Source: G963667425 sp963667425 [NCBI: bacterium] (GTDB taxonomy: Bacteria; UBP6; UBA1177). Taken from it: a stretch of 64,000 nucleotides of DNA. A program made the position numbers and the translations under genes. Positions 693-31,305 of the stretch are shown here, piece by piece; position 1 is the first letter of the stretch, and every line of letters begins with the position of its first letter. The notes under the pieces are model-generated. The model made no database searches. It was not told the DNA's origin and saw only the letters and a program-made list of their open reading frames with translations. The stretch lies in the NCBI GenBank assembly GCA_963667425.1, contig OY763407.1, forward strand, positions 372,001 to 436,000, given 5' to 3'.

Positions 693-719
693 AAGGCGGG
701 TTTAATACCCGCCTTTTTT
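693..719 (+). terminator. Rho-independent terminator after hsp20
   Basis: Perfect 8-bp stem AAGGCGGG (693-700) and CCCGCCTT (708-715) with a 7-base loop, running into a T tract. Confidence 0.9.
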
Positions 720-1013: not shown

Positions 1014-1068
1014 TTGCCAGTATTATTGTGTAAAAAAGAAAATATATATATCTCAACGGAGGAAAGTC

Positions 1069-4000
1069 GTGAGAAAGTTGATGCTTTTTTTAGTGTTTTT
1101 ACTGCCGTTTTTTTTAATAAATTCGGCTGAACACGATCTTTATATGCGCAACACCGTTTCCCCAAATGTTATGTTTATGATTGACGTTTCAGGTTCAATG
1201 GCTCTGTCTGTTTGTGATGTTGGAGAACATGGCGCTTGTGGTGCCAGTGTTTACTATGGTTCAACTGGTGCTTCATGTACATGTACTATGGGTGGCATCA
1301 CATACACTGGTACATATAAAACAAGAATCGATTATATGCGTAATGCAATGTCAGTTGTTTTTAATTCCCTTATTCCTTACGGTATAAAAGCAAACGTGGG
1401 CTATTTCCCGGCAGCTAATGCAAAGGGAACAGGCTGGTTTTGGGCTGGGAAAAAATGGTATGGTGCCAGATTTATGAGTGAAGATTTTATAAAGCTTACA
1501 AATGATTCTGTTTATCAGTTTGTTGGTGTGAATTCTTCAGGTGGATATCTTAATTCCAGTGATCTTGATCCTCATGGAACAACTCCATCCGGAGACGCAC
1601 TTATAAAAGCGTATGATTATCTTTATAATAATAACGATGAGCTTTTGTCATGCAGGCAAAATATTCTTATTCTGATTACCGATGGTGTTCCGGTTGAGGA
1701 TAATCCTTCAAAATATATATGGCGTTTTGGTTCCGATTCTGATCACAACATGGCTCCTAGAACTTCCGGTAGTGGTGAGGTTAGAGATAGTAACTTTTTT
1801 GGTCTTTTTGGAAGTACAAAAATTTGTGATTCCGGCTGTAATGCAACAGATCCGTGCCTTTGTCCAGGTTATAGAAACAGCCTTCTTTCAAGAAGTGAAC
1901 TGAAATTTGATTGGGATTTTCACCTCATATTTCCTGCTATAGCGTGTTTGAGTTGGTACTATTCTCCTGGTTGTAAAAATGATCCACTTTCTCCTTGTAG
2001 TGGAGATTCCTGTAATACAAATGCGGCTCCAAGCGACAACTGCGATAATGCTCATCTTGGATGGGGTTGTGACAGTGATCCTGCTGAAACTGTAAGTTCT
2101 TGTAAGTATATAGCTTTTGATAGGCTTAGATATGGATACATGGACCAATGGCACTATTATGGCGATGGTTCAGATCCAGGTAATCCTGGCGCCAGTACCG
2201 GAGGTTGGCTTGGAACAATTATAAAAATTTTAGGCAATTTAGGTCAGAGACTTCTTGAGCTTTTTGGTGAAGGTGAATATTACCATCCGAATCCTTTGAA
2301 TCAGAGTCCAAATAATGCTGCCGGTATTGCATCTTTCGTATATGAAGGTAACCCTTATTTTAAAGATACAAATCAAACTATGGTATTTGATACTGATGGC
2401 ACCAGAAGTGATGGCACAATTATGCAGGGCTGTTCCAAAGCAAGACTTTATCATAACCTTGCCGGTTCAGGTGAAACAGAATCTGATTGTCCTGCTGGAA
2501 ATTGTCCAGGTAACAGAATAAGAATTTTTCCGATTTTCTTTCAGGATTACGATGCAAATACATCTTCTTCTGCATATAATTATGGTAAAGGACTTATTGA
2601 AAAAATAGCTAATGTAACAAATGGTACTTTTACAAATGCAAGTAACACGAATGATCTTGTTACCAGTGTTAAAAATGCGGTAATATCAAGCATCAATGAT
2701 GTTACAACATCTTCGGCACCGGGTGTTTCAGTAAGTACTGATGGTGTGACTCTTGGAAGTGATCTTTTCCTTCCTCTTTTTTATGTCCCTCCAAGAGAGC
2801 ATTGGTGGGGTACAATAGCCAAGGTTTCAATAGATGGTGAGAACGGCTATTTTGCCAGCACTGATTATGACAATGATGGAGTTGGTGATACTCTTACAAA
2901 AGATGATAATGGTCAATATATTATGAACACTCAGGTTAAAGAGAAGTTTGCATCTCTTTCTGCCGGAAGTGATAAATATTATAATGAGGCGGCAATTAAT
3001 GCTGTAGGTAAACCTGCCACAAGCCCTGCTGGTTTTTCTATAGGAAATGAAGTCCCTGTTAGAAAAGACATATATGATTCTACTGGCGGCTATAGAGTTG
3101 GCAAGGTTTTTTATGTCGAAGAGGATACGACAGCTGACACTTTAAGATCTATGACTATTTCTGATGATAAGGGAGTCGGAACGTTTATAAGAGGTTGTGA
3201 GGTTGGTCAGGTTTGTTCTCAAGCACAAATAAGACCTAATCCGCTTGGAGATTTTTGGCATTCTTCTCCTCAAATACTACGTTATCCTTTAGGTGTTACA
3301 GGAACAAATTATATGCTTGCAGGGAGTAATGCAGGTTTCCTTCATGTTTTTAATTCAACAACTGGAAGAGAAATTTCTCTTATAGTTCCTTCAGCTTCAT
3401 TATATGCTAAACATCTTGATTTAGGCTACTATAAAAATTATGGAAAAAGCGACCTTTATGGCGTTGATCTTAAAGTTGGAAGGATCTATTATCCAAATAA
3501 TCTTTATGGTTTTACAGAAGATTGGGTTTCAATTGGTTTCAGACGTGGAGGAAATGGTTATACTTTTATAAAATCGGATGATCTTTTCAATAGTACAATA
3601 GCAGGAAAATCTGTTGTAAGATGGAAAGGTTCAAGTGGTTTTTATCAATCATGGGCTACGCCTTCTTTAATGATTCATACAGCATCAAGCGCTATTGATG
3701 AAAAATTTGTTATAGCACCAAGTGGATATCATGAGTTCTTTGATACTGATATTGATAATACAGCTGATTTTACAGCTGCAACGACAACGAATCATTTCTT
3801 TTATGGTTCAATCTGGGATAACTCTACCGCTACAGGTGTAAGAGTTGTTAAATCAGATAGTAAAGCATATCCTGTTGTTGGTAAGATATATCCGTTTTAT
3901 TATGGTGCTCTGACAGCCGGAGATGCGGATGTTACAACAGTAGCTTCTCCTGAATATGGCGTTTTTTACTATACAGACATTGTTGGAAATGTGTTTACCA

Positions 4001-4221
4001 AATTTCATGGAGACAATCCTGAAAAGATCGTTGATTTTCCTGAACTTTCAAATCAAATACTTTCTGTAACGCCAAATAGACTTACTTTAAAGGTTTTTGG
4101 TTCTGCAAAACCTGTAAAAGTTGCAAGATATGGTGCAGCTGAATCGACTTCTACAACAGCTAGTGACAGGGAAATCTGGGTTTTTTATGGTACCGGTGAT
4201 ATTACCAGAGTAGTAAATTAA
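1069..4221 (+). CDS. PilY1/PilC-like exported protein: vWA domain plus most of the C-terminal propeller
   Basis: A 1050-residue protein resembling the PilY1 family, which sits at type IV pilus tips and acts in adhesion and pilus retraction control. Signal peptide about residues 1-20. A vWA domain starts at once, with the MIDAS motif DVSGS at 39-43 and DLDPHGTTPSGDAL further on. A DYDNDGVGD calcium-binding-like loop lies near 601. The PilY1-type propeller begins at GDFWHSSPQ (about 726) and continues through AGSNAGFLHVFNSTTG, but the protein stops just after FYGTGD, where PilY1 proteins normally continue with a last section. That missing section appears at the end of the next gene. The start is GTG 1069, six bases after GGAGG; upstream in-frame TTG 985 lacks a ribosome site and would spoil the signal peptide. 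Confidence 0.82.
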   Translation: MRKLMLFLVFLLPFFLINSAEHDLYMRNTVSPNVMFMIDVSGSMALSVCDVGEHGACGASVYYGSTGASCTCTMGGITYTGTYKTRIDYMRNAMSVVFNSLIPYGIKANVGYFPAANAKGTGWFWAGKKWYGARFMSEDFIKLTNDSVYQFVGVNSSGGYLNSSDLDPHGTTPSGDALIKAYDYLYNNNDELLSCRQNILILITDGVPVEDNPSKYIWRFGSDSDHNMAPRTSGSGEVRDSNFFGLFGSTKICDSGCNATDPCLCPGYRNSLLSRSELKFDWDFHLIFPAIACLSWYYSPGCKNDPLSPCSGDSCNTNAAPSDNCDNAHLGWGCDSDPAETVSSCKYIAFDRLRYGYMDQWHYYGDGSDPGNPGASTGGWLGTIIKILGNLGQRLLELFGEGEYYHPNPLNQSPNNAAGIASFVYEGNPYFKDTNQTMVFDTDGTRSDGTIMQGCSKARLYHNLAGSGETESDCPAGNCPGNRIRIFPIFFQDYDANTSSSAYNYGKGLIEKIANVTNGTFTNASNTNDLVTSVKNAVISSINDVTTSSAPGVSVSTDGVTLGSDLFLPLFYVPPREHWWGTIAKVSIDGENGYFASTDYDNDGVGDTLTKDDNGQYIMNTQVKEKFASLSAGSDKYYNEAAINAVGKPATSPAGFSIGNEVPVRKDIYDSTGGYRVGKVFYVEEDTTADTLRSMTISDDKGVGTFIRGCEVGQVCSQAQIRPNPLGDFWHSSPQILRYPLGVTGTNYMLAGSNAGFLHVFNSTTGREISLIVPSASLYAKHLDLGYYKNYGKSDLYGVDLKVGRIYYPNNLYGFTEDWVSIGFRRGGNGYTFIKSDDLFNSTIAGKSVVRWKGSSGFYQSWATPSLMIHTASSAIDEKFVIAPSGYHEFFDTDIDNTADFTAATTTNHFFYGSIWDNSTATGVRVVKSDSKAYPVVGKIYPFYYGALTAGDADVTTVASPEYGVFYYTDIVGNVFTKFHGDNPEKIVDFPELSNQILSVTPNRLTLKVFGSAKPVKVARYGAAESTSTTASDREIWVFYGTGDITRVVN

Positions 4222-4231
4222 GGAGAAGAAA

Positions 4232-7200
4232 ATGAATAAAATAATTCTAATTACACTTCTGGTTTTAACAGGAACATGGAATTTTCTGAAAGCTGATTGT
4301 TACAACTGTGGTCCAGGTAGAGATCACTGTAGTCAACAAAATCAGTCGTATACTTGCGGAAATGGTAGCGTACAGGAAAAGTATCATTATTACTGTTATG
4401 ATGATGCTTCTTGGAGTGGAAAAAAGAATGAAATTAATGGTGGTTATGTATACGAGAGTTGTGATACTGGCTCTTCAAATACAACATCTGCCTCATGTTA
4501 CTGTACTACTAAAACAAGCTGTTCTATGTGTAGCACCAGTTGTACAAATTTTACATGCTATCATTACTGTGGTGATGGTACCAATGATGCTTCTGAGACA
4601 TGTGATTATGCTAGTACTGCACCATATAACGTCAGTTCTTTTAATTGTAAATATGGTGATGCCAGTTGTTCAAACTCCTGTAATACAAATTGTAATGGCT
4701 GGACAGCTGGTACGGTAAGATATTGCGGTGATGGATCAGTTCAATCTTCTGGCAGTTATGGAAATGCTAGAGATGGTTATGCAACAGCTGCAGAAGCTTG
4801 TGATAAAAATGCTACCTCTTGTCAGTCTCTTTTTGGGTCGTCATACTATGCTGGATATAATGTAAATTGTCCTAATACAGGTTCAACTGGAGCAAGACCT
4901 GTAAGTGAATGCCAATGGCCTACTTCCACAACAGCTTCAGTTTGTCCAAAATGCGGAGATGGTTCAGTTAATGGTCCAAGTGGTGCTGAAAACTGTGATG
5001 GTTCAAATCTTAATGGAAAAAGTTGTACAAATTTTACAGTATCAAATTATTTTGGTGATACTGTGAATTATCATTCAGGAACTCTTTCATGTTCTTCATG
5101 TGATTTTGTAAAATCATCATGCAGGTATTGTGGCGATGGAATCTTTGATAGTTCTCGTGAGCAGTGTGAAAAAAAATCAGACGGAACCTTTATTGATGTT
5201 CCAAACTGTTCAACTAAAACTGTTACAAAGCCTGATGGAACAACAATGAATTACTACAGTACAAAATCTGCCACATGTACCCATGGTTGTGTTGAAGATT
5301 TTAGTGGGTGTGAGTATTGTGGTGATGGTGTAAAGAATGGCAGCGAAGAGTGTGATGATGGAAATGGTGACAATACTGATACATGTACTAATAATTGTAA
5401 AAACCAAATTTGTGGAGATGGTTTCAAAGGTCCAGGAGAAGAGTGTGATAACGGCGCTAATAACGGTGATGACAGAGCATGTACCTCTACCTGTAAATGG
5501 AATAAATGTGGTGATGGAAAAAGATGTACAAATGGAGATTGTTCTTCTTCACCTAATTTAAGTGGAACAGAAGCATGCGATGATGGAAATACTTCAAACA
5601 ATGATTCATGTCTTACTACATGTGTTGTTGCTACATGTCACGATAGCTATAGAAAAACGGCAAATTCTTCTATCTGGAATGGAACAGGTTCTCAGCCTGC
5701 CAATGAAGAGTGTGATGATGGTAACACAAGCAATGCTGATGGATGCGTAGGAACTTGTAAAGCTGCGACATGTCATGATGGTTATAGGAAAACGGCAAAT
5801 TCTTCAATCTGGAATGGTTCAGCAGCGCAGGTAGCCAATGAAGAATGTGATGACGGTAATACTGACAATAGTGATGCTTGTGTTGGGGCATGTAAAGCTG
5901 CTTACTGTGGTGACCCATATCAGAAAACGCATAATTCTACAATCTGGAATGGAGATGCAACAAATCAGCCGCCAAATGAGGCTTGTGACGAAGGTGCAGC
6001 TAACAGCTATACAGGTACCTGTACTCCTGAATGTGTAAAAACCGGATGTGGAGATAAATTTTATAATTCAGCTACAGAACAATGTGATGATGGTAATAGC
6101 GGCAACGACAATAGTTGTGTCGTTGTAGACTTAAATGGTGATGGAGTTCTTGAATGTAAATTTGCCCGTTGCGGTGACGGTTTTACAAAAACAAGTAATT
6201 CAGCAAACTATTTTTATTATGATGGGACAAATCATCCATGGACTTCAGACATAACTGCTCATCCTGCTAATGAAGAGTGTGATGATGGTGATTCAGCATT
6301 GAATAACAATTCTCGTTGTAAACCTGGCTGTATTGTAAATTATTGCGGTGATGGTTCTCCATGTACCGGTGCAAACTGTAGCACAGGGCTTTGTGCTGCG
6401 GTGAATAATACGTCGCATTGTTCAATGCTTGAAGAGTGCGATACCGGTTCAAATACAGTTAATTGTGTTGTCAACAATACTCATACAGGTCAGAAATGTA
6501 AAAATCCATACTGCGGTGACTTTTATACAAATAATACTGCCGGTATTTCTGAAGAGTGTGATAATGGAACAGCAAATTCTACTTCAGGAACATGTATGCC
6601 AGCAGGTACTTTTGAACGTAAGGATGGTGTTGCTACATCAATAAGAATCGATTGTGATAAAGCAAGGTGCGGTGACGGCTATACTCAATCAGGTGAAGAG
6701 TGTGATGATGGAAGTACAAGTAGCGATCATGATGAGTGTGTCGTTACTAATAGTTGTAAAAATGCATACTGTGGAGACGGATATATTTGGAATGAAAATG
6801 GTGGAACAGAAGAGTGTGATAACGGTGGTTATCCTAATGCTTCTACAGGAATTGATGATCCTGCTTTAACTGGTTATACATGTATTACTCATAACAAATT
6901 TGATTCATCTTTAAATTGTAAGCAGAATGTTTGTGGTGATGGTTATATCGGTGCAGGTGAAACTTGTGACAATGGAGAAGGTGGTGCCGCCCATGCTGAT
7001 CCAAGTGACCCTGCTGATATAGGAAACAGACTTGATGGTAAGTGTCTTCCTTCTGGAACACCTCACCCTGTTACCGGTTCTGATATTGGGTGTGGAAAGT
7101 TTGATCCTACAGAGAACTGTGGTGATGGTTATATCTGGGAAGATCATGAAGCATGTGATGACGGTAACAACGATGCAGATGATGGTTGTATTGCATGTGT

Positions 7201-8869
7201 GGTTGCAATTTGTGGTGATGGTTATGTGAAAACACATGATTCTTCAGTTTGGTATACTTCAACAAGTGGCTTACAGCCAGGTGATGAAGAGTGTGATTTT
7301 GCTAAATATGATTCAACAGGCAATCCTATAGGTAACAATGATGATCTTCCTGATGCTTGTAGAACAAATTGCCTTAATCCTAAGTGTGGAGATGGTGTAA
7401 GCGGTGATGCAAGATGGCAGGAAGCTACAACAAATCTTTCGGGAACAGGAAATGTTTGGGTGAAAGATATGGATAAATCTTCTTCAACATATGGAACGCT
7501 CATTTCTGTTGCAAGAACATCTGTTCATTCAGGTGATAGATATGCTGAAGATGATGGTAGTGGAACTGTTTCAAAAGAAACTTGTGATGATGGTAACTCT
7601 TTAAATACAGATAGCTGTACTAATGAATGTAATGATGCAGTTTGTGGTGATGGTTATGTTTGGAATGGTAGAGAAGAATGTGATGATGGTGCTGCAAATT
7701 CAGATACTGCTGTAAATGCCTGTCGTACAAATTGTGCTATGCCTTATTGTGGTGATGGTGTTACAGGTGATTATATGTGGCAGATGGCGGGAGAGAATTT
7801 AACTGACTCCGGAACTGTGTGGGTAAAAGATGACTCAACTGGTACACTCATTTCTAAAGATAAAAATACGATTCTTGCTGGTGAATGGTATATTGATGAT
7901 AATGGAGGCGTTCCTTTATCAGAAGAGTGTGATCCAAATAGTTCAAATAATGGAGTTCCACCTGCTGGAAAAAATAAATGTAGTCAGGATTGTAAATGGA
8001 TAGAGCATTGTGGTGATGATATTATTGATTCAGGTTCTCCATTTTATGAACTTTGTGATGGTAACTATACTGCATGTACAGCTCCAGATGTTCCAGGAAC
8101 TTGGGTAGCTGGAGCTGCAAAATGTAATAGCACCTGTAATGGCTGGAATACAGACGGATGTCTTAAAGAGTTTAAGAAAAATGAAGTTGTGGGTTTCAGA
8201 CATTTTTATTATGATTCCACTGATGTTGAATCAGGCTGGGCATCAAATGCACATCCATTAGCCAAAACAGATTTTGTCTCTATAGATCTTGACCTTAAAA
8301 AGACGACAGGGAATTACAGTAAGAGTGATGAAAATTACTGTAAATCAACTACTGGTATTGGTTCTTCATGCTATAGATATCCTGAAAGCGCGGAAGCTAT
8401 AACAAAGAGTGGTTGGCATTTCGAATTATGGCCTGATGAAATGATGGTCGGAAGTCCTGTTTACTACCTTGGAAAGATTTATTTTACGACTTATATAAAA
8501 TATCCTAAAGATATAACAGAAACAGAAACCTGTGATATGGAAGCAGAGGATACTATTGGTTGGTCATATTTGTGGGAAGTAAATGCTTTTAATGGTAAAG
8601 CAATATCAGGAAACATCTGGTGGAGAGATGATAGAGTTAAATCTTATCTTGGTAGAGGCATTGCTTCAGAACCAGTACTTGTAGGTGATTCACTTTTTGT
8701 TGGTTCTCCTGGTGACAAAAATGTAGGAACAGCTGATATGGATTGGGGTCCACATTATCAGCCATCTGATGATGGAATAGATCCACCAGCTCCTCCAAAA
8801 GTGCCGGGTCTTATAGGCTTTGACCTTTCAATAAAACCACTTAGAATCTTCTGGTGGAAAGTTGATTAA
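4232..8869 (+). CDS. Giant exported Cys-rich repeat protein ending in the PilY1 C-terminal section
   Basis: A 1545-residue protein with its own signal peptide (about 1-21, ending FLKA). Residues about 100-1300 hold roughly 23 repeats of the type CGDG-x(n)-E-x-CDDGN-x(4)-D-x-C-x(3)-C, the DUF4215/Myxococcus cysteine-rich repeat class, probably disulfide-bonded outside the cytoplasm. From about 1310 the repeats stop, and GWHFELWPDEMMVGSPVYY, GKIYFTTY and SYLWEVNAFNG match the closing part of PilY1 propellers. It starts 10 bases after the previous stop, behind AGGAGAAG, so the two are co-translated neighbours. Several repeats carry longer inserts containing a KTANSSIWNG motif (about 5650-5960 in DNA), evidence of internal duplication. 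The function is inferred to be extracellular, most likely pilus-associated adhesion. Confidence 0.8.
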   Translation: MNKIILITLLVLTGTWNFLKADCYNCGPGRDHCSQQNQSYTCGNGSVQEKYHYYCYDDASWSGKKNEINGGYVYESCDTGSSNTTSASCYCTTKTSCSMCSTSCTNFTCYHYCGDGTNDASETCDYASTAPYNVSSFNCKYGDASCSNSCNTNCNGWTAGTVRYCGDGSVQSSGSYGNARDGYATAAEACDKNATSCQSLFGSSYYAGYNVNCPNTGSTGARPVSECQWPTSTTASVCPKCGDGSVNGPSGAENCDGSNLNGKSCTNFTVSNYFGDTVNYHSGTLSCSSCDFVKSSCRYCGDGIFDSSREQCEKKSDGTFIDVPNCSTKTVTKPDGTTMNYYSTKSATCTHGCVEDFSGCEYCGDGVKNGSEECDDGNGDNTDTCTNNCKNQICGDGFKGPGEECDNGANNGDDRACTSTCKWNKCGDGKRCTNGDCSSSPNLSGTEACDDGNTSNNDSCLTTCVVATCHDSYRKTANSSIWNGTGSQPANEECDDGNTSNADGCVGTCKAATCHDGYRKTANSSIWNGSAAQVANEECDDGNTDNSDACVGACKAAYCGDPYQKTHNSTIWNGDATNQPPNEACDEGAANSYTGTCTPECVKTGCGDKFYNSATEQCDDGNSGNDNSCVVVDLNGDGVLECKFARCGDGFTKTSNSANYFYYDGTNHPWTSDITAHPANEECDDGDSALNNNSRCKPGCIVNYCGDGSPCTGANCSTGLCAAVNNTSHCSMLEECDTGSNTVNCVVNNTHTGQKCKNPYCGDFYTNNTAGISEECDNGTANSTSGTCMPAGTFERKDGVATSIRIDCDKARCGDGYTQSGEECDDGSTSSDHDECVVTNSCKNAYCGDGYIWNENGGTEECDNGGYPNASTGIDDPALTGYTCITHNKFDSSLNCKQNVCGDGYIGAGETCDNGEGGAAHADPSDPADIGNRLDGKCLPSGTPHPVTGSDIGCGKFDPTENCGDGYIWEDHEACDDGNNDADDGCIACVVAICGDGYVKTHDSSVWYTSTSGLQPGDEECDFAKYDSTGNPIGNNDDLPDACRTNCLNPKCGDGVSGDARWQEATTNLSGTGNVWVKDMDKSSSTYGTLISVARTSVHSGDRYAEDDGSGTVSKETCDDGNSLNTDSCTNECNDAVCGDGYVWNGREECDDGAANSDTAVNACRTNCAMPYCGDGVTGDYMWQMAGENLTDSGTVWVKDDSTGTLISKDKNTILAGEWYIDDNGGVPLSEECDPNSSNNGVPPAGKNKCSQDCKWIEHCGDDIIDSGSPFYELCDGNYTACTAPDVPGTWVAGAAKCNSTCNGWNTDGCLKEFKKNEVVGFRHFYYDSTDVESGWASNAHPLAKTDFVSIDLDLKKTTGNYSKSDENYCKSTTGIGSSCYRYPESAEAITKSGWHFELWPDEMMVGSPVYYLGKIYFTTYIKYPKDITETETCDMEAEDTIGWSYLWEVNAFNGKAISGNIWWRDDRVKSYLGRGIASEPVLVGDSLFVGSPGDKNVGTADMDWGPHYQPSDDGIDPPAPPKVPGLIGFDLSIKPLRIFWWKVD

Positions 8870-8896: not shown

Positions 8897-9268
8897 ATGA
8901 AGAAAGTTCTATTCTTATCTTTGCTTGTTTTGTCTTTTACTCTGTTTGCAGATAATAAACTTAGTAAGGAATTGATGTCTGCTAAAATGACTTTATCTGC
9001 ATGTGAAAAAATGGAATCGTGTGATTCAGGAACTTTAAATTGTAAGCTAAGAGCTTTACCTGACAAAATAACACCTGCTGATAGTTCTTGTTCAAAAATG
9101 TTTGAACAAGTTTCTGAATGTATTAATTCTATGAGTTGCAAAGATTTCAAAAATATTTTTGAAAAAATGAGTTCTTTTGATGATTATACAAAAGAAGCCG
9201 GTAAATGGCCAGCTTTTACTGGATGTAATGATTTAGGAATTAAATTTGTAAAGGAATGTATGAACTAG
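8897..9268 (+). CDS. Small secreted protein with eight cysteines, unknown function
   Basis: A 123-residue protein with a clear signal peptide (about residues 1-18, ending TLFA) and eight cysteines in the mature part, which suggests four disulfides. I recognise no family. It follows the Cys-rich PilY1-like gene by 27 bases with its own AGAGG ribosome site, so it is probably part of the same secreted operon. Its stop codon directly abuts the stop of the convergent gene on the other strand, with no terminator between them. Confidence 0.75.
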   Translation: MKKVLFLSLLVLSFTLFADNKLSKELMSAKMTLSACEKMESCDSGTLNCKLRALPDKITPADSSCSKMFEQVSECINSMSCKDFKNIFEKMSSFDDYTKEAGKWPAFTGCNDLGIKFVKECMN

Positions 9269-20336: not shown

Positions 20337-21602
20337 TTATTGATTTGCAGTGTTTTTGGTCGGAGTTGTAATTATTGAGAATGTTCCTGTTCCATCAGGT
20401 ATTCTTCCCCACGAATTAGGTGCTGCCACGGCTTCTGTCCATTCAGTTTCATCAATTAAATTTTCTGATGTATCATAAAGACGTACTTTATCTCCATTTT
20501 TTCCAAGACCGAAAGTAAAACCGGCATCTTCGGTATCGGCTTTCTCAAAAACAACGTAAGCTCCGGCAGGAATATTTGTTGAAGGTATTGTCCAACTGTT
20601 TGCATCATCATCATCTTTAAGTATCCAACCGGTTATATCAACAGCTTCTGTTCCAATGTTTTTAAGTTCAACCCAGTCTGGGTCTGTTTCACTGTCTGCA
20701 ACAACTTCATTAATTACTATAGGCGGTGGTGTCGTTACAACATCTGTGTCACTTTGTTCTTCATCGGAAATTATTTCATCTGAATCCACTGTTTCATCAG
20801 TGTCTGCAATAATATCTTCGTCAGTTACCTCTTCTTCGTCAACTATTACATCGTCATCATTTTCTTCAAGAATACTGTTTTCACTTCCTTTTGTAGGGTT
20901 GTTAATTATTGTGAAATCTCCTGTTCCATCAGGAATTCTTCCCCAGCTTGTACCTTCCTCCATCTCTGTATTCCAGCTTGTATTTGCTGTAAATGCGCTG
21001 TCTTTGCTTGTTATTACAACACTGTCTTCAGATTTTGAAAGTCCAAATGTAAATCCGTTTTCTCCTGTTTCATCTTTCCCGAATACAATGTATTTGCCAG
21101 CAGCAACTGTTGTTCCTTCAGGAATAGTCCAGGCATTTTCCGCATCACTATCAGAAATTATCCATCCTGAAATATCAACTGTTGCATTGCTGATATTTTT
21201 CAGTTCCACCCAGTCTTCCTCACCATCCAGAGGATTTGCAACTACTTCGTTTATGACTATTACTGTTTCTGTCTGTGGAGTATCTTCATCTGTTTCTGCG
21301 TCAGTGATTTCATCTGCATCATTTTCATCATCGGTAGGAATTATATCACTGTCTTCTGTAATTACACCGGAGCAGTTTTCTGTGGTAATTTCGGTACAGT
21401 CTGATGAGCATGTAAGTGTACCTTCAGAAAATTCATAATCGACACATGTTTTGGATGCAAATTCTTGTCCGTCACAAACTTCACCGCTGTCTATCTGACC
21501 ATTTCCGCAAAGTTTATCATTTCCAGCATTATTATTGCTGTCCGAACAGCTTGTAACTATGAATGCAAAAGCTGTAAACAATAAAAACAAAATCTTTTTC
21601 AT
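20337..21602 (-). CDS. Lipoprotein with a Cys-rich repeat and two lamin-tail domains
   Basis: A 421-residue surface or periplasmic lipoprotein with lipobox VTSC (Cys 19). A single Cys-rich CGNGQIDSGEVCDG unit follows, similar to those in the large repeat protein at 4.2-8.9 kb. Two lamin-tail (LTD) beta domains, each beginning VINEVVA and containing DWVELKNI, DISGWI and SWGRIPDGTG, are separated by linkers almost entirely of Asp, Glu, Thr and Ser. LTD domains in bacteria occur on exported proteins and nucleases; no catalytic domain is present here. It is 11 bases downstream of the porin-like gene and possibly in its operon. Confidence 0.85.
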   Translation of the reverse strand: MKKILFLLFTAFAFIVTSCSDSNNNAGNDKLCGNGQIDSGEVCDGQEFASKTCVDYEFSEGTLTCSSDCTEITTENCSGVITEDSDIIPTDDENDADEITDAETDEDTPQTETVIVINEVVANPLDGEEDWVELKNISNATVDISGWIISDSDAENAWTIPEGTTVAAGKYIVFGKDETGENGFTFGLSKSEDSVVITSKDSAFTANTSWNTEMEEGTSWGRIPDGTGDFTIINNPTKGSENSILEENDDDVIVDEEEVTDEDIIADTDETVDSDEIISDEEQSDTDVVTTPPPIVINEVVADSETDPDWVELKNIGTEAVDITGWILKDDDDANSWTIPSTNIPAGAYVVFEKADTEDAGFTFGLGKNGDKVRLYDTSENLIDETEWTEAVAAPNSWGRIPDGTGTFSIITTPTKNTANQ

Positions 21603-25105: not shown

Positions 25106-28100
25106 TTAATCAAGATCAATTATATCTTTAGGTGAATGTGCTACAAATTTATGTTCGTTCTGAGAAGAATGATGTCTGATAGCTGAAGAGGAATTTCTTC
25201 TGTCAAAAGATTTTGAGGCATTTCTTATTTTGAATCTGCTTACCATTTCACGAAGTGTGGCTGCCTGACTGCTGAGCTCTTCAGATGCCGCTGCACTCTC
25301 TTCCGCACTTGCAGTATTCTGCTGTGTTACCTGTTCAACCTGATTTAGACCTACATTTATCTGTGAAACGCCCTGAGCCTGCTCATTAGATGCGGCAGCT
25401 ATTTCTCCTACAATATCACTTACTTTTGTGATAAGTGTAACTATCTGGGAAAGCACTTCGTTTGTCTGTTGAGACATGTTTGCTCCGGTATTTGATTTTA
25501 AGACAGCATTTTCAATCATTTCTCCTGTTTCTTTGGCAGCTTTTGCACTTCTTGCAGCAAGATTTCTTACTTCTTCTGCAACAACTGCAAAGCCTTTTCC
25601 GTGTGTTCCTGCTCTTGCTGCTTCAACTGCTGCGTTAAGCGCAAGAAGATTTGTCTGGAAGGCTATTTCGTCAATAACTTTTATGATTTTTGATATTTCG
25701 TTACTTGAAGACTGAATCTCTTTCATAGCAGAGAGAAGCTCTCCCATCTGTTTTGTCCCTTTGTCGGCAGCTTTCATTGCTTCGTCAGAGATTATATTTG
25801 ACTGGGATGCATTTTGAGCATTTACTTTTGTCTGGCTGGCGATCTCTTTCATTGAACTTGAAATTTCCTCAAGACTGGATGCCTGTTCTGTTGCTCCCTG
25901 TGAAAGCATTTGTGAAGCATTTGCAACCTGAGCTGAGCCGTTTGAAACCTGATCTGTTGTCATGCTTACTTCGGAAAGAATTTGATTAATGGCGGATATG
26001 GTATTGTTGAGAGTGGTTTTTAGTGTTAAGAATATACCGTTATAATTTCCTTTTATTTCGTTTCTCAAGTCTCCTGATTCCATTTCTTTAAGTATATCAA
26101 CAACTTCAGATAATGGTTCAATAATTGTTCCAACAGCTTTATTGAGTCCTGTAAATATTTCTCTGTAGGCACCGTTTACAGATGCTTCATCAAGATTTAT
26201 TTTAGAAAGCTCACCTTCGGCGGAATAATCCGCAAATTCGTTTACACCTTTGATAAGTCTTTTAAGTGACTGAATCATTGTAATAAATGCCGGAACAAGT
26301 TTATCTTCTTTTGAGCGTTTTCCGACTTTCTGAAGTGTTTCAAGGTCAGAGAGATCACCTTCCGATATTCTTACTACAATGTTCTGAACATTTACGAGTC
26401 TTGCAATAACATCATTTGCGGCATTCTGTATGTCGTTATAAACTCCTTTATGTTCACCTTTAACCTCTTCTGTATAATTGTTCACTGAAACCTGTTTGAG
26501 AATTCTGGCACCTTCTTCAAGTCCCTGAAGAGCTTTTACAGCATCATTGATATTTGTTTTTATCTTATCAAAATCGCCTTTGTATTCTTTTGTAACAGGC
26601 TGAGGTATTTCACCTTTTGATACTTTATCAAAGTATCCTGCCGTCATTTTTAAGGGTTCGACAAGAGTATCTATTAAAGTATTTATGTTGATAACAAGTT
26701 TTGCCCAGTCTCCTTTGAATTTTGATCCGTCTCCTCTGTCATTCAGATTTCCGTTGTTTATACTTCCTGAAACTCTTGAAATGCCTGTTATTATTAAAGA
26801 TATGTTGTTTATAAGTGTGTTGATGCTGCTTTTTATTTTATTGAAATCACCGTTATATTCATCTGTTATTGCTGGTGGCATATCTCCCTCAGATATTCTT
26901 TCAATATATTCCAATACAGTATTTATTGGACGGACAAAAGTATCTAAGATTTGATTAACATCTTGAATTATAATTCTGAAATCTGGCGCAACAGTTTCTG
27001 AATTTCCTCTGTAATTAAGTTCACCATTTTTGACAGATTCTGATATAGCTATAAAACCGTCACTCATTAAATTAATGTTTCGTTTGAGATTTTTTGTTAT
27101 AAAAAACATTACTGTAACAATAAAAATTATTGTAATAATGCTTAATATTATGAATTGATTAACAAAGACGTATGCTGATGCCATAGCTTTTTTCATTGGA
27201 ATGGAAATTCCCACAAACCAGCTAGTTTCAGTTTTTCCAATTTTAAAAGGTACAAATGAAATATGCATATCTTCATTTTTTTCTTCAGATTTTATATTAA
27301 CAAAAAAAGTTTCTCCTTTTTTTATTAACGAGATAACGTCTTTTGTTTTGAATGTGCTGTTGACTTCATTTATTGTTTTTCCTACAGCATTATTATCAGG
27401 ATGATAAACTATAGTTCCGTTGTTTGCGGCAAGAAGAGCGTATCCTGTATCATAAGGTTTGATTTCAGATATTATTGATTTTATTATATCCATAGCAATA
27501 TCAACACCTGCAACACCTAATATTTCTCCGTTATTGTTTTTTATTGGAACAGCAATGCTCACAACAGTTGTTTCAATTCCATTGACAGGGTAGGTTATCG
27601 GTTCCAGTATTTCTTCTTTTTTGTTTCTTTTTGCCCTGTTATAATATTCACCTGTAGATTCTGTGGAGTCATAATCTACACATGCTTCAAGATGAACTCC
27701 ACCAACTCTGTTCCAGTATGGAACAAATCTTCCTTTGCTGTCGTTTCCGTTAATATTAATAAATTCTGAATCTTTACCATCAAAGGCATTTGGTTCCCAG
27801 ACTGTCCATACGCCAAGGAATTCAGGATTGTTTTCTAAATTATATTTCAGTATGTTGTTAAATGCTTCTCGTGAAATATTTCCTTGTTGGAGTAATCCTG
27901 ATGCTGTAGCAGAAATATCTCTTGCCAGATGAAGAGGTTTTTCAAAATACGATTTGACTTCATTTGAATATCTATATCCTGTCTCAGATGCATTTTTATA
28001 TGCATCTTCTTTTTTTGCTTCAAATAAAGAACTTGCAGTAAAAAAAACGAATAAAAATAAACAGACAACCAATGTGCTTACTGAATACGTAAACATTTTT

Positions 28101-28114
28101 GTAGAAAGTTTCAT
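25106..28114 (-). CDS. Methyl-accepting chemotaxis protein with dCache sensor (copy 1)
   Basis: A 1002-residue transmembrane chemoreceptor. First membrane segment about 10-30, a periplasmic double-Cache sensor (about 35-305; [16 protein letters not shown] and [17 protein letters not shown] are Cache-type), second membrane segment about 318-340, then a long chain of HAMP-like repeats with the recurring EYNGDF.KIK..IN motif, and the signalling domain with [21 protein letters not shown]. From about residue 426 to the end it is almost identical to the neighbouring receptor, while the sensor differs, so the pair should feed different stimuli into the same kinase. No CheR-binding pentapeptide is evident at the C-terminus. 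Confidence 0.93.
25110..26836. repeat. 1.73 kb direct repeat, copy 1 (3' part of chemoreceptor 1)
   Basis: Matches 28292-30018 at a constant offset of 3182 bases. I count seven mismatches, all in the first 700 bases, and none in the remaining 1 kb. The repeat begins within the last codons and ends abruptly inside a HAMP-like segment. Confidence 0.95.
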
Positions 28115-28287: not shown

Positions 28288-31200
28288 TCAGTCAAGATCA
28301 ATTATATCTTTAGGTGAATGTGCTACAAATTTATGTTCGTTCTGAGAAGAATGATGTCTGATACCTGAAGAGGAACTTCTTCTGTCAAAAGATTTTGAGG
28401 CATTTCTTATTTTGAATCTGCTTACCATTTCACGAAGTGTGGCTGCCTGACTGCTGAGCTCTTCAGATGCCGCTGCACTCTCTTCCGCACTTGCAGTATT
28501 CTGCTGTGTTACCTGTTCAACCTGATTTAGACCTACATTTATCTGTGAAACGCCCTGAGCCTGCTCATTAGATGCGGCAGCTATTTCTCCTACAATATCA
28601 CTTACTTTTGTAATAAGTGTAACTATCTGGGAAAGCACTTCGTTTGTCTGTTGAGACATGTTTGCTCCGGTATTTGATTTTAAGACAGCATTTTCAATCA
28701 TTTCTCCTGTTTCTTTGGCAGCTTTTGCGCTTCTTGCCGCAAGATTTCTCACTTCTTCTGCAACAACTGCAAAGCCTTTTCCGTGTGTTCCTGCTCTTGC
28801 TGCTTCAACTGCTGCGTTAAGCGCAAGAAGATTTGTCTGGAAGGCTATTTCGTCAATAACTTTTATGATTTTTGATATTTCGTTACTTGAAGACTGAATC
28901 TCTTTCATAGCAGAGAGAAGCTCTCCCATCTGTTTTGTCCCTTTGTCGGCAGCTTTCATTGCTTCGTCAGAGATTGTATTTGACTGGGATGCATTTTGAG
29001 CATTTACTTTTGTCTGGCTGGCGATCTCTTTCATTGAACTTGAAATTTCCTCAAGACTGGATGCCTGTTCTGTTGCTCCCTGTGAAAGCATTTGTGAAGC
29101 ATTTGCAACCTGAGCTGAGCCGTTTGAAACCTGATCTGTTGTCATGCTTACTTCGGAAAGAATTTGATTAATGGCGGATATGGTATTGTTGAGAGTGGTT
29201 TTTAGTGTTAAGAATATACCGTTATAATTTCCTTTTATTTCGTTTCTCAAGTCTCCTGATTCCATTTCTTTAAGTATATCAACAACTTCAGATAATGGTT
29301 CAATAATTGTTCCAACAGCTTTATTGAGTCCTGTAAATATTTCTCTGTAGGCACCGTTTACAGATGCTTCATCAAGATTTATTTTAGAAAGCTCACCTTC
29401 GGCGGAATAATCCGCAAATTCGTTTACACCTTTGATAAGTCTTTTAAGTGACTGAATCATTGTAATAAATGCCGGAACAAGTTTATCTTCTTTTGAGCGT
29501 TTTCCGACTTTCTGAAGTGTTTCAAGGTCAGAGAGATCACCTTCCGATATTCTTACTACAATGTTCTGAACATTTACGAGTCTTGCAATAACATCATTTG
29601 CGGCATTCTGTATGTCGTTATAAACTCCTTTATGTTCACCTTTAACCTCTTCTGTATAATTGTTCACTGAAACCTGTTTGAGAATTCTGGCACCTTCTTC
29701 AAGTCCCTGAAGAGCTTTTACAGCATCATTGATATTTGTTTTTATCTTATCAAAATCGCCTTTGTATTCTTTTGTAACAGGCTGAGGTATTTCACCTTTT
29801 GATACTTTATCAAAGTATCCTGCCGTCATTTTTAAGGGTTCGACAAGAGTATCTATTAAAGTATTTATGTTGATAACAAGTTTTGCCCAGTCTCCTTTGA
29901 ATTTTGATCCGTCTCCTCTGTCATTCAGATTTCCGTTGTTTATACTTCCTGAAACTCTTGAAATGCCTGTTATTATTAAAGATATGTTGTTTATAAGTGT
30001 GTTGATGCTGCTTTTTATCTCATTAAAATCACCATTATAGTTTTCTGTTATTTTCTCAGGAATATTTCCTTCTGCTATATTTTTTATATATGAAGATGCC
30101 ATATTAAGAGGTTTTTCATAAGCATCCATTATGTTGTTGAATCCCTCTATAAGAGGTCTGAATTCTGGGGTTACAGTTTCAGTATCTGCTCTTTTGCCGA
30201 GTTTGCCATTAACAATATTCTCTGTAAGAGATATAATTGTGTTTTTTATTGTGTTTATTATTCCTGATATGTTTTTTGATATTAAATAAAGAACAAAGCC
30301 AATTATAAAAACAGATATGAGAGCCAGTATAAAAGCAAAATTCCTCATTTCTTTTACATCTTTCATGATTTCATCGACTGGTATTACTACTGCAACAGAC
30401 CATGGTGTTTCTGTTGAAGAAATTGTGACAGGTGAATATACAAGCTTTGAAAGCGCATTTGTTGCGAGAGATTTTTTCTCAAAAGTATATGTTTTTCCTG
30501 TTTTTACGGCGTCAAGAAGTTCTTTCTGAATTTCAGGTGTATCATCACCGACAATTCTTCCAAGAAGTTCCTTTTTTTTGTGTGCGACTCTTGCTCCGGT
30601 ATTTGAAACTAAAATAGCATATCCACCCATAGGTTTAAATTCATTTGTTATTTTGTTAAGGTATGCAAGATCTATGTCTATTCCTACTTCTGCAACATAT
30701 TGACCATTAGCGAAAACAGGAACCATAATACTTGTCATCAGTATTTTTTGTGACTCATCTCCTGAATAACTGTCAAAATAAGGATCCATAATTATTTCTT
30801 TTTTGGCTGTTAACATTGACTGATAATAGTCTTCTTTCGCCAGATCTTCTTCATTTGTAGGGAAACCTTCTATGTTGTTATTGTTCCAGTTAAATCCCGG
30901 AGTAAATCTTCCTGTTTCGTTATTATATTCGTTTTTCTGCACATTTATGTCATTATTGTCCAGTGCATTCTTTTCCCAAACAGACCATACACTTAAAAAC
31001 TGCTTGTTCTTTTTCAGAATTCCTTTTAGTACATTAGCATATTCAGCTCTTGAAATAACATTATTTTCTTTCATAGCTGAAAATGTTTCAGCTATGGTTT
31101 TAGCAGACTGCATTGTTTTACTGAGTTCTTCCTGAATTTTTGCTGCATATTCCATAGATATTGATTCTGCATTAGCATCAACAGCTTTTTTTTGAAGAGT

Positions 31201-31305
31201 TGTTGATTCATAGGAAAGAATTGAAATGATAAAGAAAATAGCTATGAAATTAATAGCAAGAACAGAAATAAGAAGTTTGGTTCCAATTTTCATGTTTTTA
31301 AACAT
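28288..31305 (-). CDS. Methyl-accepting chemotaxis protein with dCache sensor (copy 2)
   Basis: A 1005-residue chemoreceptor with the same architecture as its downstream neighbour: membrane segment about 10-30, Cache-type periplasmic sensor (about 35-310, with [18 protein letters not shown]), second membrane segment about 322-344, HAMP-like repeats and a methyl-accepting signalling domain. From about residue 429 to the end only three residues differ from copy 1 (Thr/Ile, Ser/Asn, Gly/Ala). The ATG follows GGAGGCATC, a strong ribosome site. It is 173 bases upstream of copy 1 on the same strand, a tandem pair. Confidence 0.93.
28292..30018. repeat. 1.73 kb direct repeat, copy 2 (3' part of chemoreceptor 2)
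   Basis: Second copy of the repeat described for 25110-26836. Flanking sequences on both sides (intergenic region and sensor half) are unrelated between copies. Confidence 0.95.

What the first reader, a model, noticed from the sequence alone, without database searches (positions are those of the whole stretch)
1069..8869. PilY1 propeller split between two exported proteins, the second carrying a 23-unit Cys-rich array
The first protein has a vWA domain and PilY1 propeller but stops right after FYGTGD, where PilY1 proteins normally have one more section. That section (GSPVYYLGKIYFTTY, SYLWEVNAFNG) is found at the end of the second protein, behind about 1300 residues of DUF4215-type Cys repeats. 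The second gene has its own ribosome site and signal peptide, so this is a designed split, not a simple frameshift. I infer that the two chains complete one propeller outside the cell, presenting the Cys-rich stalk at a pilus tip.
Basis: partly seen in the sequence, partly recalled or inferred. Interest (0 to 1): 0.75.

Follow-up and report, generated by a model that had tools for sequence, protein, structure and literature searches.

The report
PilY1 pilus-tip protein split in two
A protein that normally sits at the tip of bacterial grappling fibres is here encoded as two separately exported chains, the second carrying a long cysteine-rich stalk ahead of the missing last piece, so the two chains may have to click together outside the cell to make one working part.

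Summary
P1 (1069-4221) is a vWA + PilY1-type protein that stops just after FYGTGD. P2 (4232-8869) has its own ribosome site, signal peptide, 23 CGD/CHD cysteine units and, at its end, the PilY1 section that P1 lacks. With a profile of two intact PilY1 proteins of one relative, P2's only significant match is the last section (positions 1151-1302), while P1 matches earlier parts. P2's tail scores 34.3 bits against 7.6 for the best of 1000 shuffles. In 16 of 16 assessable PilY1 genes of relatives, propeller and last section share one frame. No split copy was found in 28 held genomes, so the case rests on one locus. That the chains complete one propeller in trans is the best reading (about 0.6), not shown: single-sequence models failed (pLDDT 30) and no co-fold could be run. 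A pilus-tip location is unproven: no pilin-type motif in the window. New context: in 11 of 16 class loci (a twelfth cut short) a separate cysteine-rich gene follows intact PilY1.

The parts
693..715 (+). terminator-like hairpin after the hsp20 gene, separating it from the P1-P2 unit
   Evidence: 9-pair stem followed by T-rich tail (number of such sites in the region, 4, is as expected by chance, 4.4, so weak)
1058..1062 (+). ribosome-binding site of P1 (GGAGG)
   Evidence: read in sequence
1069..4221 (+). P1: exported vWA + PilY1-type protein lacking the last propeller section (1050 aa, GTG start)
1069..1128 (+). P1 signal peptide (MRKLMLFLVFLLPFFLINSA)
   Evidence: read in sequence; cleavage site inferred, no program run
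1153..1698 (+). P1 vWA-like region with MIDAS DxSxS (1183), GTTPSGDAL (1576) and ITDG (1675)
   Evidence: motif scan; hhalign to G028 vWA region E 3.7e-8; NF033757 E 1.8e-8 but far below its cut-off; Pfam VWA below cut-off
3229..4218 (+). P1 PilY1-type propeller part, from LGDFWHSSP to FYGTGDITRVVN; by eye four blades and the first two strands of a fifth
   Evidence: blade count is inference
4220..4225 (+). ribosome-binding site of P2 (AAGGAG), overlapping the P1 stop codon
4232..8869 (+). P2: exported Cys-rich array ending in the PilY1 last section (1545 aa)
4232..4294 (+). P2 signal peptide (MNKIILITLLVLTGTWNFLKA)
   Evidence: read in sequence; cleavage site inferred, no program run
4355..8161 (+). 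Cys-rich array: 24 units by C[GH][DN], 23 of them CGD/CHD, DUF4215 / TIGR02232 type
8243..8866 (+). PilY1 last section (profile match covers 8243-8719; blastp and MAFFT would begin it earlier, at 8147 or before): FVSIDLDLKKTTG, SGWHFELW...GSPVYYLGKIYFTTY, SYLWEVNAFNG, LGRGIASEPVLVGDSLFVGSP, RIFWWKVD
8897..9268 (+). P3: small exported Cys-containing protein (123 aa), 27 bases after P2, likely same transcript; no family over cut-off, no clear relative in 28 genomes

Best explanation
P1 and P2 are the two halves of one PilY1 protein, made as separate exported chains, probably from one transcript. The cut lies inside the propeller, probably between the strand ending FYGTGD (P1) and the strand that follows it (P2, about residue 1348). 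P1 gives the vWA domain and the first blades; P2 gives the rest of the cut blade and about two more, carried at the end of a disulphide-rich array. Shown: the division of the homology between the chains, adjacency, separate start and (by eye) signal peptide. Inferred: that the two chains meet outside the inner membrane and complete one seven-bladed propeller, as Sec13 and Seh1 (propellers lacking a blade) are completed by partner proteins, so that the array is held as a stalk beside the vWA domain. Most likely origin, also inferred: a gene for a secreted Cys-rich protein was inserted into, or recombined with, the loop after FYGTGD of a PilY1 gene.
For: Profile of the intact G028 pair (search of two proteins): P1 matches positions 29-126, 247-361 and 796-829, and without significance 1136-1150 (FYGTGD strand); P2's only significant match is 1151-1302 (i-Evalue 1.5e-11). 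P2 tail 34.3 bits versus best 7.6 in 1000 shuffles; P1 propeller 15.7 versus 2.8 in 1000 shuffles with the all-relatives profile. hhalign P2 tail versus G028 PilY1 95.5%, E 1.3e-8. One of the two G028 proteins was scanned and is itself over the Pfam PilY1 and VWA cut-offs. 16 of 16 assessable relatives keep the last section in cis. Spacing of 10 bases with the P2 ribosome site overlapping P1's stop suits translational coupling. In class relatives a separate Cys-rich gene follows intact PilY1, an independent link between the two kinds of partner. GC content alike in P1, array and tail (0.377, 0.391, 0.377), so no sign of a recent foreign insertion. In P. aeruginosa the propeller spans about 640-1150 with seven blades (PMC11891296, passages seen), so the last section is part of the propeller there. 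Precedent for completion by a partner: Sec13/Seh1 (PMC8907234, passages seen).
Against: One locus only; no second split copy in 28 held genomes of the phylum, and the P1 search also missed the remote PilY1 genes that are there, so it could find close copies only. No structure: single-sequence models had pLDDT 29.6 and 30.4. The tail is not matched by the profile of class PilY1 proteins (hhalign 0.2%; no hit; -4.3 bits with the mixed profile), so its homology rests on three sequences of two genomes. The break is not sharply placed: blastp and MAFFT lay P2 from residue 1306 or before on G028 residues that precede YLGTGD (1128 there), so P2 might repeat part of the cut blade; MAFFT also put P1's FYGTGD in another register. 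A tail profile does not find 3HX6 in the PDB at E up to 10. P1's propeller has no Pfam PilY1 hit. No pilin-type motif in the window. The calcium motif occurs in P1 only at residue 599, before the propeller. The arrays closest to P2's belong to proteins not next to a PilY1 (L164, L165, L166), which weakens the link to the giant Cys-rich genes.
Confidence: 0.6

Rival explanations
1. The P2 tail is an independent folding unit (about two propeller-like blades) that anchors the Cys-rich array to something else, or pairs with itself, and P1 folds as a shorter propeller without it.
For: Blades V-VII of PilY1 are irregular (PMC11891296, passages), so a shortened propeller is conceivable; the tail has repeated strand patterns of its own (by eye); if P2's homology starts at residue 1306 or before, it would hold more than the missing half of the cut blade.
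Against: P1 ends between two strands, not at a blade boundary by eye; adjacency and division of the homology over two neighbouring chains would then be coincidence.
Confidence: 0.2
2. A broken PilY1: insertion of a Cys-rich gene destroyed the protein and both halves are relics.
For: No other species with the split among those held; P1 and P2 are diverged from intact relatives (20-28% identity).
Against: Both frames are open over 1050 and 1545 codons, each with ribosome site and signal peptide by eye; the tail keeps conserved positions of the family (27 columns invariant in four sequences).
Confidence: 0.1
3. An artefact or a joined product: assembly error in the repeats, or a ribosomal frameshift that makes one chain.
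For: The array is repetitive, and a +1 shift at the P1 stop would enter P2's frame (read).
Against: A joined chain would carry P2's signal peptide inside it; an assembly error would need two precise junctions, one of them creating a ribosome site, start codon and signal peptide 10 bases after a stop; I saw no slippery site by eye.
Confidence: 0.04
4. P2's tail completes another PilY1-type protein encoded elsewhere in the genome, not P1.
For: No whole genome is held, so other PilY1 genes cannot be excluded; class relatives have a PilY1 in a minor pilin operon.
Against: P1 and P2 are neighbours, P1 lacks what P2 has, and P2's tail is not of the class type.
Confidence: 0.06

Closest known systems
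PilY1 / T4P_PilY1 (PF05567; P. aeruginosa PilY1, structure 3HX6)
   Same: Order of propeller motifs (HSSP, GSNxGxLHxF, FRRGGxGY, YYTDxxGNxF, FYGTG) in P1 and of the last section in P2; vWA at the N-terminus; profile of six relatives plus P1 hits 3HX6 at 2e-25.
   Different: Propeller divided over two exported chains; 1300-residue Cys-rich array before the last section; calcium motif only before the propeller; no minor pilins seen in the window.
Intact vWA-PilY1 pair of genome G028 (L138, 1285 and 1326 aa)
   Same: Same domain order and closest tail.
   Different: One chain, no array; lies about 7 kb from Flp/Tad pilus genes.
Class-type PilY1 operon with giant Cys-rich gene (L140, L142, L144-L151, L154; cut short in L153)
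   Same: PilY1 and a Cys-rich exported protein encoded together.
   Different: PilY1 intact, about 2100 aa; Cys-rich protein separate, 2.4-3.1 kb downstream, in a minor pilin operon.
DUF4215 (PF13948) / TIGR02232 Cys-rich repeats
   Same: Repeat units of P2.
   Different: Fused to a PilY1 section.
Sec13/Seh1 with Nup145C/Nup85 (eukaryotic, incomplete propellers completed by a partner)
   Same: Proposed working principle (PMC8907234, passages).
   Different: No homology claimed; there one blade is given, here about two and a half by my count.
PilY1 gene pairs of M. macrosporus and S. cellulosum
   Same: Two adjacent genes for one PilY1 (PMC13190605, section 2.5 part 1 read).
   Different: There judged annotation errors by the authors; no array described in what I read; in M. 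macrosporus the cut separates the DUF4114 and propeller domains.

Membership tests
PilY1 (PF05567) | PilY1 propeller domain by profile | tested here: inconclusive
   P1 has no direct Pfam hit; linked through relatives: blastp 1.5e-7, hhalign 93%
PilY1 (PF05567) | Propeller complete in one chain | tested here: not met
   Last section absent from P1, present in P2
PilY1 (PF05567) | Last section after FGTG present in the gene unit | tested here: met
   P2 1338-1496 matches profile 1151-1302; 34.3 bits versus 7.6 best shuffle; G028/G030 type only
PilY1 (PF05567) | N-terminal vWA with MIDAS (common, not universal) | tested here: met
   DVSGS at 1183, T loop 1576, ITDG 1675; hhalign E 3.7e-8 to the G028 vWA region; below Pfam cut-off
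PilY1 (PF05567) | Calcium motif Dx(D/N)xDGxxD in blade IV (common, not universal) | tested here: not met
   Only occurrence in P1 is at residue 599, before the propeller
PilY1 (PF05567) | Type I signal peptide | tested here: inconclusive
   Clear by eye for both chains; no signal-peptide program run
PilY1 (PF05567) | Genes with minor pilins (usual) | tested here: inconclusive
   No pilin-type motif in six frames of the window, but P1 begins 1.1 kb from the window's edge, so genes upstream are unseen
PilY1 (PF05567) | Location at pilus tip, role in pilus assembly | not testable with these tools
   -
DUF4215 repeat protein (PF13948) | Repeat units over the curated cut-off | tested here: met
   54.2 bits, cut-off 27, 10 stretches
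Propeller completed in trans (Sec13 type principle) | Physical docking of the two chains | not tested

The most novel reading that the evidence does not exclude
A bacterial surface beta-propeller cut in the middle of a blade is rebuilt outside the cell from two separately exported chains, and this non-covalent join is what couples a long disulphide-rich stalk to a vWA adhesin, possibly as a releasable or force-sensitive joint at a pilus tip; in related species a stalk-like protein is a separate partner encoded behind an intact PilY1.
Probability: 0.45. Interest if true: 0.75.

Novelty: new variant of a known kind. Interest (0 to 1): 0.5.

Why it matters
If the chains do join, it would be a natural PilY1 propeller split within a blade and assembled after export, giving a test of where the propeller tolerates cuts, and a way by which bacteria attach very large Cys-rich proteins to an adhesin without making one huge chain. 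It also points to a possible partner of PilY1: the giant Cys-rich proteins encoded behind intact PilY1 genes in the same class. Searches (PilY1 with DUF4215; DUF4215) returned no paper; in the listed part of searches I saw no report of either (titles and abstract starts only, apart from the papers cited; most subscription papers are not held).

Tried and rejected
Direct search for P1 in genome contigs gave no relative; tblastn of P1 in plasmids none. P1 by protein search gave nothing in 2, 25 and 28 genomes (nested sets), so relatives were reached by the Pfam PilY1 family and by P2. Viral contigs: P2 hit one small DUF4215-like protein on a contig that has an integrase-like frame by eye, not pursued; a propeller alignment matched 18 stretches, none confirmed. 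P2 tail in PDB: best E 1 alone and 0.049 as a four-row profile, to unrelated proteins. Structure models of P1's propeller and P2's tail from single sequences had pLDDT about 30 and were not searched further. P3: matches up to E 1 in 18 of 28 genomes, best 0.004 and that one over the signal peptide, not taken as relatives. Considered and rejected: frameshift or assembly artefact (see rivals). The likeness of P1 to CglB (33.8 bits, cut-off 200) was taken as general vWA likeness.

Full report
What was checked. P1 runs from GTG 1069 (GGAGG at 1058-1062) to 4221 and P2 from ATG 4232 to 8869, with P2's AAGGAG at 4220-4225 lying over P1's stop codon. P0001 in my calls begins at 1075, two residues in. 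Both chains begin with a hydrophobic signal peptide by eye. Pfam sees DUF4215 in P2 and NCBIfam the myxo_disulf_rpt repeat. Neither library sees PilY1 in P1 or P2.

Where the window comes from. No genome is held for it. A hydrogenase subunit led to two genomes (a capped list of 80 from at least 586; chosen with the help of neighbouring genes) whose UvrB is 66-67% identical. In the phylum of these (28 genomes held) UvrB matched in 23 at the strict cut-off used: 63-69% in 21 of the 25 genomes of G002's class, 52-53% in G028 and G030. So the window belongs in or near that class. I could not name the class; record titles call the two genomes uncultured Spirochaetales bacterium (L003) and Bacterium (L006).

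PilY1 in the relatives. The Pfam PilY1 family matches in 18 of 28 genomes, 19 matches, 4 of them over the curated cut-off in 3 genomes. I fetched long stretches for 17 of the 18 genomes (not G004), holding 18 of the 19 matches, and one of G030. In 16 the propeller and the last section are in one frame: two in G028 (1285 and 1326 aa, ending FKEIF) and 14 of the class type (ending WYELY; one of these, L154, lacks its start at a contig end). Two could not be judged: L155 runs off its contig and L152 departs from its near-twin L153 close to the contig end.

Homology of the two halves. A profile of the two intact G028 proteins matches P1 at positions 29-126, 247-361 and 796-829 and, without significance (-3.3 bits), 1136-1150, the FYGTGD strand; P2's only significant match is 1151-1302 (29.5 bits, i-Evalue 1.5e-11 in a search of two proteins), 1150-1302 and 34.3 bits when the tail is searched alone. 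In the control, with 1000 shuffles each and 87 frames of the window of at least 100 codons (plus-strand frames starting between 1000 and 9000 were left out; one of the 87 is the longer frame that holds P1), P2's tail stood against 7.6 bits for the best shuffle; P1's propeller scored 8.1, 9.1 and 15.7 with three profiles, against 4.8, -1.4 and 2.8; no frame other than P1's scored above 1.3. hhalign agrees: class PilY1 profile versus P1 93%, E 2.9e-7, covering about the first half of the propeller; G028 profile versus P1 only its vWA part, E 3.7e-8; G028 profile versus P2 tail 95.5%, E 1.3e-8. Against: the class profile does not see P2's tail (no hit), so the tail is of the G028/G030 type. Searching the phylum with a tail alignment found the two G028 genes, one in G030 cut by a contig end, and one chance hit (the three genuine ones are rows of the alignment itself). 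The protein search of P1 in the phylum was empty although remote PilY1 genes are there, so it shows only that no close copy is held.

Where the cut lies. In the intact G028 protein the counterpart of FYGTGD (YLGTGDSNIHDLAKDEGKNTLYAIKDS, from residue 1128) leads at once to the next strand. In P1 the chain stops at FYGTGDITRVVN; in P2 the profile puts the next strand at about TDFVSIDLDLKKTTG (residues 1346-1360). On this reading the array sits in a loop between two strands. This register is not certain: blastp begins the P2 match at residue 1306, opposite G028 residue 1086, and MAFFT also lays P2's earlier residues opposite the stretch before YLGTGD, so P2 may repeat part of the cut blade; and MAFFT placed P1's FYGTGD elsewhere, while paired it with YLGTGD. 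Counting blades by eye gives four and a half in P1 and two and a half in P2, seven in all, the number known for P. aeruginosa PilY1, whose propeller spans about residues 640-1150 (PMC11891296, passages). This count is inference. The profile of six relatives with P1 matches 3HX6 at 2e-25 through positions 25-188, the first blades; its alignments of the later part, among them SGW of the last section, are below significance (about -1 bit), and a profile of the tail alone does not find 3HX6.

Context. P3 (8897-9268) follows P2 by 27 bases; beyond it lies a convergent gene. No pilin-type motif occurs in the window, but the unit begins 1.1 kb from the window's edge. In the class, intact PilY1 lies in a minor pilin operon (pilin-type starts by eye) and is followed at 2.4-3.1 kb by a Cys-rich exported protein: 11 of 16 loci by a rule of at least 4% Cys over at least 150 aa; a twelfth (L153) has the start of one with 3.1% Cys, cut by the contig end; the other four have less than 2 kb left. 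Five of these genes followed further code for 3648-4499 aa with 201-313 Cys, one (L160) running off the stretch fetched. They share repeat likeness with P2's array (best E 1e-11, L160), but proteins that are not next to a PilY1 are closer (L164, 5e-23; L166, 1e-20; L165, 1e-16), so this may be no more than common repeat make-up. Still, a PilY1 followed by a Cys-rich exported protein is a pattern of the class, and in the window two such parts are welded at the PilY1 tail. The intact G028 pair, the closest in type, is not in a minor pilin operon by eye but lies on the same contig as Flp/Tad pilus genes about 7 kb away (RcpC/CpaB and two T2SSF proteins), so the pilus of this PilY1 type might be of the Tad kind.

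How it may work. In M. xanthus PilY1.3 is proposed to sit at the pilus tip, its conserved C-terminal part towards the pilus and its vWA at the far end (PMC7541494, passages); PilX is predicted to pair with PilY1 by strand complementation (PMC13190605, section 2.2 read). If P2's tail completes P1's propeller, the array would leave the propeller as a stalk beside the vWA domain. Completion of a propeller by a partner is known from Sec13 and Seh1 (PMC8907234, passages). Nothing here shows docking.

What is in print. PMC13190605 (abstract, sections 2.1, 2.2, 2.5 part 1 of 2 and Discussion read; passages) describes PilY1 diversity in Myxococcota, with rising Cys content in some clades, and two cases of adjacent PilY1 gene fragments that the authors take for annotation errors. 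Searches (PilY1 with DUF4215; DUF4215) found no paper. Searches (12 of 136 listed, none of those 12 holding PilY1; 4 papers listed) showed no split PilY1 with a Cys array; for these I saw listings only.

Verdict. A real and unusual division of a known protein, a new variant of a known kind, with a plausible but untested mechanism and a single example. Interest 0.5; it would rise if the same split were found in other species or a co-fold closed the ring.

Noticed in passing
L140, L142, L144-L151, L154 (and cut short L153); L157-L161: Minor pilin operons with intact PilY1 of about 2100 residues are followed by a giant Cys-rich exported protein (3648-4499 aa in the five followed), a possible partner of PilY1.
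   Followed up: partly
L138:3862-7719 and L138:8336-12316; L162:4482-8442: Two intact vWA-PilY1 genes in tandem, 60% identical, in genome G028, about 7 kb from Flp/Tad pilus genes (RcpC/CpaB, two T2SSF proteins, an FHA protein).
   Followed up: partly
window 8897-9268: P3, a small exported Cys-containing protein directly behind P2, with no family over cut-off.
   Followed up: partly
window 25106-28114 and 28288-31305: Two tandem chemoreceptor-type genes (by eye): last 600 residues 587 of 600 identical, first 350 hardly alike without gaps (25 of 350).
   Followed up: no
window 20337-21602: Lipoprotein-like protein with a Cys-rich start like the array units by eye, acidic linkers and two lamin tail domains.
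   Followed up: no
L152:8600-8707: PilY1 of G007 is nearly identical to that of G008 (2051 of 2135 positions) but its last residues differ close to the contig end, probably an assembly fault.
   Followed up: no
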